64,000 nt of DNA from NCBI GenBank assembly GCA_002690045.1, contig NZDE01000011.1, positions 152,582 to 216,581 of the forward strand, given 5' to 3'. Shown piece after piece: positions 42,292-58,217 of this stretch. How positions within the stretch are numbered: the first letter of the stretch is position 1; every line of letters starts with the position of its first letter. Under the pieces are notes generated by a model. It had not been told where the DNA came from and did not search any database. It saw only the letters and a program-made list of their open reading frames with translations. This DNA is from Alphaproteobacteria bacterium (GTDB taxonomy: Bacteria; Pseudomonadota; Alphaproteobacteria; Micavibrionales; Micavibrionaceae). Both the position numbers and the translations under genes were made by a program.

Positions 42292-42361
42292 GGACAGACA
42301 TAATAAAGGGCAAAAAGAAGAAAGACAAGCCGCCCCTACCATGTACTTAAGTATCCTCGTG

Positions 42362-42500
42362 TGGCCCAGTTAAACTAGGTGGGCGCCGTGATGTCTAAGT
42401 CCGCAAACCTAAACAGGGACAGCTCCCTTACGAGAACGCATCGGCCTCCGGGATAAATGTTGTATCACGCATAGCGCAGCCTGTCTTCCCATGTGATATA
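42362..42500 (-). ncRNA. ssrS: 6S-like regulatory RNA (candidate)
   Basis: The gap between zapA and the cyclo-ligase gene, transcribed on the minus strand, holds about 140 bases with no good ORF. It has a long double-stranded layout: the 5' third GACAGGCTGCGC, an internal CCGGAGGCC region, a GGGAGCTGTCCC hairpin, and a 3' part with GGCGCCCACCTAG and a GCCCA / TGGGC hairpin. The zapA-6S-cyclo-ligase order is well known in proteobacteria. 6S RNA binds the sigma-70 holoenzyme. Ends are approximate; I inferred the 5' end from a TATAAT on this strand at 42507-42512. Confidence 0.7.
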
Positions 42501-54469: not shown

Positions 54470-55078
54470 ATGGATTGGCAACGTTTAGACCGTAAAGCAA
54501 CAGAAGACCTGATTCAGAAAGCTGGATCAGCATCTGTATTGTTTTCTCCTCAAACAAGCGAAGCGCGCCGTGCAACTTTATCATTTCTTGATAATTATGC
54601 GCTCTACCGCCTGACAAACTATGCAGCACTGCCAATGATCTCGCTTGATTATTTGGTTAATGAAAACACCACAAGTGGCGGCAGTGTGTTTTATCTAGAC
54701 GGTTCCACAGCACCTATTTTTCATGCCATACGTAATGATACGTTTAATTTAAGTGACGAAACCGTCATTTCCTATGTGAACTTCTTTTATAAGAATGCAC
54801 CAGACCCCGATGGCGATATCTATATCATTCAGGATCTTGAAAGCCTTGTATTCTTTGACCTGCTTGAGAGCGATCAACAGGCCCTTTTGCAAAGCAACTT
54901 CACAGCACCGCAAATTCAGCCCCATGGTGATGGCAGCGTAGAAATAAAAGCATGTCTTGTTTATCAAGGCAGCCTTGTTAAAGCGGACGTTTTTGTCAGC
55001 AAGGATGGTTCGGTCAAAATAAACAATATTCAAATGATGCTGCGCTCCACCCCCGCTTATCATAAGATGGACAATTAA
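54470..55078 (+). CDS. Unknown soluble protein
   Basis: A 202-residue protein with a helical first 60 residues and a mixed beta-rich rest (GSVFYLDGSTAPIFHAI near residue 73). No signal peptide and no motif that I know. The ribosome site is poor. It is followed after 55 bases by another unknown gene, with which it may form a unit. The 105-base gap before it holds GGGTCTGTCCC, which I do not regard as a terminator. Confidence 0.55.
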   Translation: MDWQRLDRKATEDLIQKAGSASVLFSPQTSEARRATLSFLDNYALYRLTNYAALPMISLDYLVNENTTSGGSVFYLDGSTAPIFHAIRNDTFNLSDETVISYVNFFYKNAPDPDGDIYIIQDLESLVFFDLLESDQQALLQSNFTAPQIQPHGDGSVEIKACLVYQGSLVKADVFVSKDGSVKINNIQMMLRSTPAYHKMDN

Positions 55079-55133: not shown

Positions 55134-55748
55134 ATGAACACAGATAACAACGCAAAAACGGAAAGTGAACTTCAAGGTCCCTTCTCTCAAATGGGTCAGC
55201 CTGGCGCTTTGGACGCATTACGCCATGAGCATCATGATGTAATTGTGCAAAAAGCCCGCGAAAGCCTGAACAAAGTGCCTACAGGTCAGGCACTATTAAA
55301 GTTACTTGAGCGCTATAAGTTCCCTATTAACGTTCTGAAGGGCAAAGAGATTACCTATATTAGCCCTGATGAAAAAAGCCTGACAATATTTGCACCACCT
55401 GAGTATAAAAACCTTGAGAGCATCTTAGCTATGGCGCTTGGCCTTGGTCTACGTGAGCTAGAACAAGCGTTAATGGGGATTACACGCCCGAGTGAAGAGA
55501 TGGATGATATTACATATTGCCAACGCGTCCTTACGAAAAGTGTTGACATAACTAAATATATGTGTATAATTGCTAATGAATTCCATGAGAAACTTAATGA
55601 TAAGAAGCCTCTTGACAAGGTTATTGAATTAGGACATGGTGACGTATATACCGCATACGTAAATAAAGTTTCATATGAAGAGTTCGTAGACATCTTTGTC
55701 GAGAACGATATAGAGGCATATGAAAAAAGTACAGGTAATAGTGAGTAA
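55134..55748 (+). CDS. Unknown soluble protein, basal to the small-ORF pair
   Basis: A 204-residue mostly helical protein; the best folded-looking segment is ALLKLLERYKFPINVLKGKE near residue 50 and MALGLGLRELEQALMG near 100. No motif recognised. GAGAGATAACTATTT precedes the ATG. A 48-residue ORF begins 19 bases after the stop, so it is likely translated from the same message. I cannot give a function. Confidence 0.6.
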   Translation: MNTDNNAKTESELQGPFSQMGQPGALDALRHEHHDVIVQKARESLNKVPTGQALLKLLERYKFPINVLKGKEITYISPDEKSLTIFAPPEYKNLESILAMALGLGLRELEQALMGITRPSEEMDDITYCQRVLTKSVDITKYMCIIANEFHEKLNDKKPLDKVIELGHGDVYTAYVNKVSYEEFVDIFVENDIEAYEKSTGNSE

Positions 55749-55767: not shown

Positions 55768-55914
55768 ATGACACGTGCAGGTAACACAACTACACATTTA
55801 ATGAATATGAAAAGCGCATTAGCGCCGTCTATGTTGAATAAACTTCGTGTTTCTTCAATTCCAGAGACTGGTAACAGCATTCATGCTCATAAACGCCCTT
55901 CACTACGCATTTAA
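55768..55914 (+). CDS. 48-residue small protein, first of a paralogous pair
   Basis: A short ORF just downstream of the gene at 55134, with AAGG ahead of the ATG. Its C-terminal half has Leu-Asn-x-Leu-Arg, Ile-Pro-Glu-Thr-Gly at residues 31-35, His-Ala and Pro-Ser-Leu-Arg-Ile. The small ORF at 56117 carries the same pattern, and both starts lie in the same AGGTGCA-x-TATGA context. No signal peptide or membrane segment is evident. The IPETG string recalls a sortase signal, but the protein lacks the hydrophobic tail. A good terminator follows. I do not recognise the family. Confidence 0.5.
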   Translation: MTRAGNTTTHLMNMKSALAPSMLNKLRVSSIPETGNSIHAHKRPSLRI

Positions 55915-55942
55915 TATAGCGTAGGTTATATATAGAATTTTG

Positions 55943-55970
55943 AAAAGCCGCCCGCATGGGCGGTTTTTCT
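55943..55970 (+). terminator. Intrinsic terminator after the first small ORF
   Basis: CCGCCC and GGGCGG arms around GCAT, flanked by AAAAG and TTTTT, 28 bases after the stop codon of the small ORF. Confidence 0.85.
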
Positions 55971-56051
55971 TATGCGTCAACACAGCGCGTAATAAAATTA
56001 CCCATCAAAAATAGTTATTAACATTATATTTCATTATTTTCTTTTTGCGCA

Positions 56052-56080
56052 TTGACAGGCGTTTCAAAACGAGTCATGGT
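56052..56080 (+). promoter_or_regulatory. Possible promoter of the second small ORF
   Basis: TTGACA at 56052-56057 and CATGGT at 56075-56080, 17 bases apart, lie 37 bases upstream of the ORF at 56117. The -35 is perfect; the -10 is poor. Confidence 0.4.
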
Positions 56081-56116
56081 TAAGGTAACGATAATTAAAA
56101 ACATAAGAGGTGCAGT

Positions 56117-56278
56117 ATGAAAGCAGGACTTATTTCAGAGAGTTGTAAAAATCTAGGAAAGATTGACACACTTAACGCCCTACGTGCCGTTGCACAAGAG
56201 TGCTATGCTCTTCCAGCAACAGGTTCCCTAACTATGGATAACCGCGTGCATGCTGCGCCAAGCGTGAAAGTCGCTTAA
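56117..56278 (+). CDS. 53-residue small protein, second of a paralogous pair
   Basis: Has the same leader as the first (AGGTGCA-x-TATGA with GAGG as ribosome site) and a similar residue pattern: Leu-Asn-Ala-Leu-Arg, then Leu-Pro-Ala-Thr-Gly at 32-36, His-Ala and Pro-Ser-Val-Lys-Val. Two Cys residues (10 and 29) are present only in this copy. No membrane segment is seen. It has its own promoter-like and terminator sequences, so it is an independent unit. The gap from 55915 to 56116 holds nothing more that I can support. Confidence 0.5.
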   Translation: MKAGLISESCKNLGKIDTLNALRAVAQECYALPATGSLTMDNRVHAAPSVKVA

Positions 56279-56299: not shown

Positions 56300-56332
56300 A
56301 AAACCGCTCTGTGCAAACAGGGCGGTTTTTGT
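56300..56332 (+). terminator. Intrinsic terminator after the second small ORF
   Basis: ACCGCTCTG and CAGGGCGGT arms (one G-T wobble) around TGCAAA, with a T run after, 22 bases past the stop codon. Confidence 0.85.
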
Positions 56333-57902: not shown

Positions 57903-58217
57903 ATGAAACACTTTAATAAATTATTAGTAGTGTGCAGTACTATACTTGTTGCTGGTTGCGCTACTAACGTAACGCCAACACCCATAGGTGGAAGTAAAGC
58001 AGATGGAACTGTAACCCTAGCATTCCAATACAGTATGTTTGAGCAACCTGTCGTTGATTGGCCAACAGCCCAAGTACAAGCTGTTAGTCGATGTAAAGCT
58101 TGGGGTTATAAAGATGCAGATTCATTTGGTGGACAGCAAAATCAATGCTTAGCATATAATGGATACGGTAGTTGTGTTAACACTCAAGTTAGCATTACTT
58201 ACCAATGCACCAACTGA
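57903..58217 (+). CDS. YecR-like lipoprotein
   Basis: A 104-residue protein with a lipoprotein signal (MKHFNKLLVVCSTILVAGCA; the Cys is residue 19 or so) and the YecR-family body with GGSKADGTVTLAF near residue 29, CKAWGYKDADSFGG near 68 and CLAYNGYGSCV near 82, where paired Cys may form disulfides. In enterics YecR is linked to flagellar regulation, but the family is wide and its function is unknown. Sits alone between gcvPA and a hydrolase-like gene. Confidence 0.85.
   Translation: MKHFNKLLVVCSTILVAGCATNVTPTPIGGSKADGTVTLAFQYSMFEQPVVDWPTAQVQAVSRCKAWGYKDADSFGGQQNQCLAYNGYGSCVNTQVSITYQCTN

What the first reader, a model, noticed from the sequence alone, without database searches (positions are those of the whole stretch)
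55768..56278. Two tiny paralogous ORFs with a shared leader and residue pattern
The ORFs of 48 and 53 residues both start in AGGTGCA-x-TATGA, and their C-terminal halves share Leu-Asn-x-Leu-Arg, Ile/Leu-Pro-x-Thr-Gly, His-Ala and Pro-Ser-Leu/Val-Arg/Lys-Ile/Val in the same order. Each is followed by its own strong terminator. That is more agreement than short random ORFs should show. I know of no described family like it. The second has its own promoter-like pair; the first is probably read through from the gene at 55134.
Basis: partly seen in the sequence, partly recalled or inferred. Interest (0 to 1): 0.7.

Follow-up and report, generated by a model that had tools for sequence, protein, structure and literature searches.

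The report
Hypervariable small genes beside dead peptidase
Two tiny genes in a Micavibrio-type bacterium are real protein-coding genes, and the first belongs to an undescribed, fast-changing kind of small gene found behind the same partner gene in most related loci examined, although what its protein does is not yet known.

Summary
Both ORFs exist as described. Each keeps its frame in the two same-genus genomes with dN/dS 0.20-0.42 (ORF1) and 0.36-0.50 (ORF2), so they are genes. The 'paralogous pair' reading is not supported: ORF1/ORF2 resemblance is p = 0.0003 in the window, 0.006 in G001 and 0.40 in G002, and the shared leader is a ribosome-binding-site variant also used by ordinary genes.

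The larger finding: ORF1 ('C') is one copy of a position-locked small gene. In 55 of 77 loci examined (shuffled control: mean 2.4, maximum 6), a strict ribosome-binding site and short ORF follow the gene at 55134 ('B'). B is a degenerate DUF6782 relative without the HExxH motif. In 4 of 13 same-genus pairs the C interior is at or near shuffled similarity although the end of B is 88-97% identical; in 4 it is 87-98% identical; 5 lie between. B holds a perfect promoter-like site pointing at ORF1, moderately supported in 7 of 31 genera. I infer, without test, that C is a diversifying small protein bound by the A-B proteins.

The parts
54470..55078 (+). Gene A, 202 aa, unknown; joined to B in one protein in some genera (for example L028)
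   Evidence: No Pfam/NCBIfam match at E <= 1; hhalign to the N-terminal half of the fused protein L028, probability 99.3; paralogue beside a DUF6782 pair in the same genome, probability 97.3; model pLDDT 86.6
55134..55748 (+). Gene B, 204 aa, degenerate DUF6782 relative without HExxH
   Evidence: hhalign to a DUF6782 profile, probability 95.9, E 6.4e-9; model pLDDT 83.8; matches in 92 of 137 genomes of the order
55543..55570 (+). Promoter-like site inside B (TTGACA-N16-TATAAT), ahead of ORF1
   Evidence: 12 of 12 matches; kept as DNA in g4 and g19 loci L071 and L073, not in L072; codon-shuffle test moderate, 7 of 31 genera
55768..55914 (+). ORF1 = small gene C1, 48 aa
   Evidence: dN/dS 0.20, 0.32, 0.42; SD plus short ORF in 55 of 77 loci against 2.4 shuffled
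55942..55969 (+). Terminator-like hairpin after ORF1
   Evidence: -24.7 kcal/mol for 55915-55985, z -4.06; not listed by the pattern scan
55996..56116 (+). Conserved region ahead of ORF2; no good promoter pair found
   Evidence: 106 of 120 bases identical in G001; no site of 9/12
56117..56278 (+). ORF2 = second small gene C2, 53 aa
   Evidence: dN/dS 0.36, 0.42, 0.50; 3 of 58 genomes, own included, below E 1e-6
56300..56329 (+). Terminator-like hairpin after ORF2
   Evidence: -20.5 kcal/mol, z -4.04

Best explanation
Shown: ORF1 (C1) and ORF2 (C2) are small protein genes. C1 is the third gene of an A-B-C unit of the Micavibrio order. B descends from the DUF6782 family but lacks its HExxH motif, so it is probably not an active peptidase. 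C follows B closely with its own ribosome-binding site; its interior has been replaced beyond recognition in some close pairs and is held by purifying selection in others. Inferred: in part of the family C is also transcribed from a promoter inside B; the C protein is largely disordered and is a ligand or client of A-B, with B holding a peptide instead of cutting it; C diversifies because difference itself is selected (recognition, signalling or an arms race). C2 is an additional small gene in this genus.
For: Reality of C: 55 of 77 loci against shuffle mean 2.4, maximum 6; purifying selection, e.g. 27 synonymous to 2 nonsynonymous changes in G012/G117. Replacement: G093/G094, end of B 97% identical, C interior 0.59 against shuffled 0.55, while dS of B is 0.21; mosaic G076 (N-terminal part like G012, C-terminal part like G013). 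B. Promoter; synonymous conservation of the last 57 codons of B in several genera. Disorder-type composition, Ala 14.8, Ser 9.5, Gly 8.6, Pro 7.3%. A goes with DUF6782-type proteins at a second locus and by fusion.
Against: No binding, expression or peptide data. B hardly changes where C is replaced (G093/G094 dN of B 0.017), which is not what a tightly co-evolving receptor would show. In 24 of 31 genera the promoter site has no clear excess, and part of it follows from the protein motif. The extra conservation of B's 3' end is absent in g8, g11, f3g42 and G136/G137. No common RNA structure. Five f3g48 genomes have B without a convincing C. 5 of 13 pairs are neither conserved nor replaced. No disorder predictor was run.
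Confidence: 0.4

Rival explanations
1. Precursor peptide and modifying enzyme: C is, or descends from, a ribosomally made precursor peptide, and B is a worn-down relative of peptide-modifying HExxH enzymes that now only binds it.
For: Best structural match of the B model is the HExxH domain of ChlB (8s5f_E, Z 10.1, 153 residues, 4.0 A), then SjiH (22ob, Z 8.3), then BlaR1 at 6.8. Such alpha-ketoglutarate HExxH enzymes act on precursor peptides (PMC12636437, passages).
Against: HExxH is lost in B. Foldseek has 0 of 239 matches at E <= 0.001. No constant leader in C. No other peptide-modifying gene or transporter seen by eye beside L069-L073.
Confidence: 0.15
2. Only the act of translating C matters (mRNA stability or coupling); its sequence is nearly free.
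For: Sequence differs beyond recognition between genera; interior at shuffled level in 4 of 13 pairs.
Against: dN/dS 0.01-0.05 in g11 where it could be computed (G012/G117, G117/G116) and 0.11 in G024/G079; free drift does not outrun the synonymous rate of B as in G093/G094.
Confidence: 0.15
3. C is a toxin or antitoxin of a small two-part system with A-B.
For: Small, close behind a partner gene, rapidly diverging.
Against: One locus per genome in a conserved chromosomal place and no hit outside the family in 387 class genomes, unlike mobile toxin-antitoxin pairs. The PADLOC library was not searched.
Confidence: 0.08
4. ORF1 and ORF2 are paralogues with a shared residue pattern.
For: Global alignment p = 0.0003 in the window and 0.006 in G001; AGGTG[CT]A before both ORFs in all three genomes.
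Against: p = 0.40 in G002; part of the match is derived in the window's lineage; the leader is a ribosome-binding-site variant.
Confidence: 0.12

Closest known systems
DUF6782 (Pfam PF20573), putative metallopeptidase family
   Same: B aligns over 140 columns with DUF6782 proteins of these genomes; the A-type partner recurs beside a DUF6782 pair
   Different: B lacks HExxH and scores below Pfam's cut-off; only 1 of 21 members reaches even E 0.0041
alpha-ketoglutarate HExxH enzymes of RiPP pathways (ChlB HExxH domain; IPR026337 as cited in PMC12636437)
   Same: Best structural match of the B model (Z 10.1); enzymes of this kind act on small peptides
   Different: No HExxH in B, no significant Foldseek match, no RiPP neighbours seen by eye
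Peptide signal and receptor pairs such as Rap-Phr or AimR-AimP (recalled, no call)
   Same: Small, quickly diverging ORF just behind a larger partner gene, with a promoter-like site inside that gene
   Different: B is a peptidase-like fold, not a TPR protein; no export signal seen by eye in C1 or C2; B does not change with C in G093/G094

Membership tests
DUF6782 (PF20573) | Profile similarity over the domain | tested here: met
   hhalign probability 95.9, E 6.4e-9 against 12 DUF6782 proteins; direct Pfam scan only E 0.0041 in 1 of 21
DUF6782 (PF20573) | HExxH motif of a metallopeptidase | tested here: not met
   HELRH in L075, L076 and HELRHH in L057; GLREL in B. Other DUF6782 relatives here have lost it too
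alpha-ketoglutarate HExxH peptide hydroxylases | HExxH iron-binding motif | tested here: not met
   absent in B
alpha-ketoglutarate HExxH peptide hydroxylases | Fold of the HExxH domain | tested here: inconclusive
   Z 10.1 to 8s5f_E, but a best Z of 7-8 is typical without any true relative (note); Foldseek not significant
RiPP precursor peptide | Constant leader with variable core | tested here: not met
   start region kept in some pairs only; no common leader across genera
RiPP precursor peptide | Post-translational modification | not testable with these tools
   needs mass spectrometry
Peptide signal and receptor pair (Rap-Phr, AimR-AimP type) | Secreted, processed peptide read by a cognate receptor | not testable with these tools
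   no export signal by eye in C1 or C2; two g35 proteins (G060, G067) have a signal-like start by eye
Toxin-antitoxin pair | Growth inhibition relieved by the partner | not testable with these tools
   no assay
ORF1/ORF2 paralogue family | Resemblance kept between orthologous pairs of relatives | tested here: not met
   p 0.0003, 0.006, 0.40 in G000, G001, G002

The most novel reading that the evidence does not exclude
The A-B-C locus is a peptide-identity system of the Micavibrio order: a catalytically dead peptidase fold binds a small protein whose interior is swapped like an allele between species, giving each lineage its own recognition or effector peptide.
Probability: 0.2. Interest if true: 0.85.

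Novelty: new variant of a known kind. Interest (0 to 1): 0.58.

Why it matters
A small gene held in place across an order but replaced wholesale between some close relatives suggests selection for difference. Its function is unknown, and the one library search for DUF6782 found no paper. What appears to be M. aeruginosavorus ARL-13, an obligate epibiotic predator with published attack- and attachment-phase RNA-seq (PMC3189940, passages seen), carries the unit, so expression could be checked from existing data.

Tried and rejected
Paralogy of ORF1 and ORF2: not supported. More paralogues in the genome: none with the 48-aa protein at E <= 10 or the 53-aa protein at E <= 1. AGGTG[CT]A as a special leader: rejected, it also stands before ordinary ORFs; against that, 0 of 56 ATG ORFs of 150 aa or more in the window has AGGTG there (these are mechanical ORFs, not all genes). 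RNA family at the locus: only 6S RNA elsewhere in the window. Common RNA structure in the B-C leader: none convincing in three genus sets and one mixed set. Function of A by fold: best Z 5.3. Family of C: for 8 C-type proteins of other genera no Pfam match reached its cut-off. Below the top rows, the structural lists for B hold many clostridial neurotoxin light chains and anthrax lethal factor at Z 5-6; I take these as the general zinc-peptidase fold, crowded in the PDB, with no claim of kinship. Papers: DUF6782, 0 papers; 'Micavibrio' with 'small protein', 5 papers, none on this by title (listing only).

Full report
Setting. The window is 152582-216581 of contig C11 of a 2.88 Mb genome. Named loci close to it are Micavibrio sp. 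UBA2705 (B 80% identical) and Alphaproteobacteria bacterium BWSM_8 (88%), so this is a Micavibrio-type alphaproteobacterium. The gene order is an SH3-type gene (-), dusA (+), A (54470), B (55134), ORF1 (55768), ORF2 (56117), gcvPA (names of SH3, dusA and gcvPA are by eye).

Observation. ORFs, leaders, residue order and terminators are there. The promoter statement is the wrong way round: the perfect sigma-70 pair (55543-55570) lies in B ahead of ORF1, and no site of 9 of 12 or better is listed for ORF2, although the stretch ahead of ORF2 is well conserved (106 of 120 bases in G001).

Genes. By sequence, ORF1 and ORF2 are each found below E 1e-6 in 3 of 58 genomes, the own and the two same-genus ones; all other rows are E 0.05 or worse. 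dN/dS is 0.20, 0.32, 0.42 for ORF1 and 0.36, 0.42, 0.50 for ORF2, and length differences keep the frame.

Paralogues? Not on this evidence. The resemblance goes from p = 0.0003 to 0.006 to 0.40 across the three genomes, and ORF1's PSLRI is GPAPR in both relatives. The AGGTG[CT]A leader also stands before ordinary ORFs.

The unit ORF1 belongs to. B has matches in 92 of 137 genomes of the order at E <= 1e-5 (a few weak rows, such as G071 with a 449-aa frame, may be true DUF6782 proteins) and in 5 of 387 genomes drawn across the class at E <= 1e-12, all five in the window's family. In 77 of the 92 I read what follows B: 74 have an ATG ORF of 25-110 aa within 125 nt, 66 with an SD-like word, 55 with a strict 5-base SD word, against a mean of 2.4 and maximum of 6 with shuffled downstream DNA (the shuffle moves blocks of two bases, so it keeps dinucleotides only roughly). 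Five f3g48 genomes read by eye have nothing convincing. Outside the genus ORF1 is not found by similarity, so the family shows only by position. The frame is confirmed in other genera: synonymous to nonsynonymous changes 27 to 2 in G012/G117, 3 to 0 in G136/G137, 7 to 3 in G024/G079. In L071-L073, the three loci outside the genus that I read through, genes that look like erpA, sufT and sufS follow on the other strand (names by eye). A second small ORF also follows C in both f2g36 genomes, the two only weakly alike (p 0.016).

Variability. Thirteen same-genus pairs were measured. In four (G136/G137, G024/G079, G000/G001, G012/G117) the C interior is 87-98% identical. In four the last 170 nt of B are 88-97% identical but the C interior is at or near shuffled sequence: G093/G094 0.59 (control 0.55), G096/G099 0.50 (0.46), G136/G038 0.59 (0.60), G063/G066 0.62 (0.59). 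Five lie between, for example G093/G095 at 0.74 (0.55). The ribosome-binding site and hairpin region are recognisable on both sides, although bulk downstream identity is 0.55-0.99. For G093/G094 the synonymous divergence of B is 0.21, so ordinary drift is a poor explanation. G093's C is closer to G095's than to that of G094, its nearer relative by B. G076's C joins an N-terminal part like G012's to a C-terminal part like G013's. Replacement or recombination with selection is the simplest reading; I have no strain-level data.

B and A. B aligns with the DUF6782 proteins of these genomes (probability 95.9, E 6.4e-9) but falls short in Pfam itself. HELRH of L075 is GLREL in B; several other DUF6782 relatives here have also lost the motif. 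The B model (mean pLDDT 83.8) looks like a zinc-peptidase fold. Its best structural match is the ChlB HExxH domain, Z 10.1, then SjiH 8.3, then BlaR1 6.8, with nothing significant in Foldseek. A and B form one protein in some genera (open frames of 356-420 aa; L028), and an A paralogue lies beside a DUF6782 pair elsewhere in the genome.

Transcription. The site inside B is kept as DNA in L071 and L073, not L072, and by codons such as CTT GAC ATA and ATG TGT AAA ATA, also in some genomes with third-position GC above 0.6. Against codon shuffles it stands out in g1, g3, g4, g19, g20, g23 and g24, with 10-12 of 12 matches and p 0.003-0.30 per genome, except G097 (9 matches, p 0.43) and G114 (8, p 0.86); the other 24 of 31 genera show no clear excess. 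Part of the signal follows from the protein motif, so I rate it moderate. The last 57 codons of B are more conserved at synonymous positions than the rest in g1, g4, g23, g35 and G136/G038 and in most g3 pairs, not in g8, g11, f3g42 or G136/G137. A functional RNA leader or recombination around C would both do this.

Mechanism. I judge it most likely that C is a small, mostly disordered protein bound by A-B and selected to differ. Binding, disorder and purpose are inferred. 

Noticed in passing
42323-42485, strand -: 6S RNA (RF00013, 57.4 bits).
   Followed up: no
57903-58217, strand +: YecR-like lipoprotein (PF13992, E 1.8e-21) between two genes that look like the glycine decarboxylase subunits (by eye).
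   Followed up: no
L074 (G000:C8:133000-138000): A pair of DUF6782 proteins without HExxH beside an aroE-like gene, with a paralogue of gene A next to them; G002 has the same arrangement (L078).
   Followed up: partly
L021 and L027 (f2g36 genomes G037 and G042): A second SD-preceded small ORF follows C, as in the window; the two proteins are weakly alike (p 0.016).
   Followed up: partly
f3g48 loci L127, L128, L130, L134, L135: B is present but no convincing small ORF follows; other sequence stands in its place.
   Followed up: no
L085 and other g35 loci; G060 and G067 C proteins: C of G060 and G067 begins with a signal-peptide-like stretch by eye, unlike the window's ORFs.
   Followed up: no
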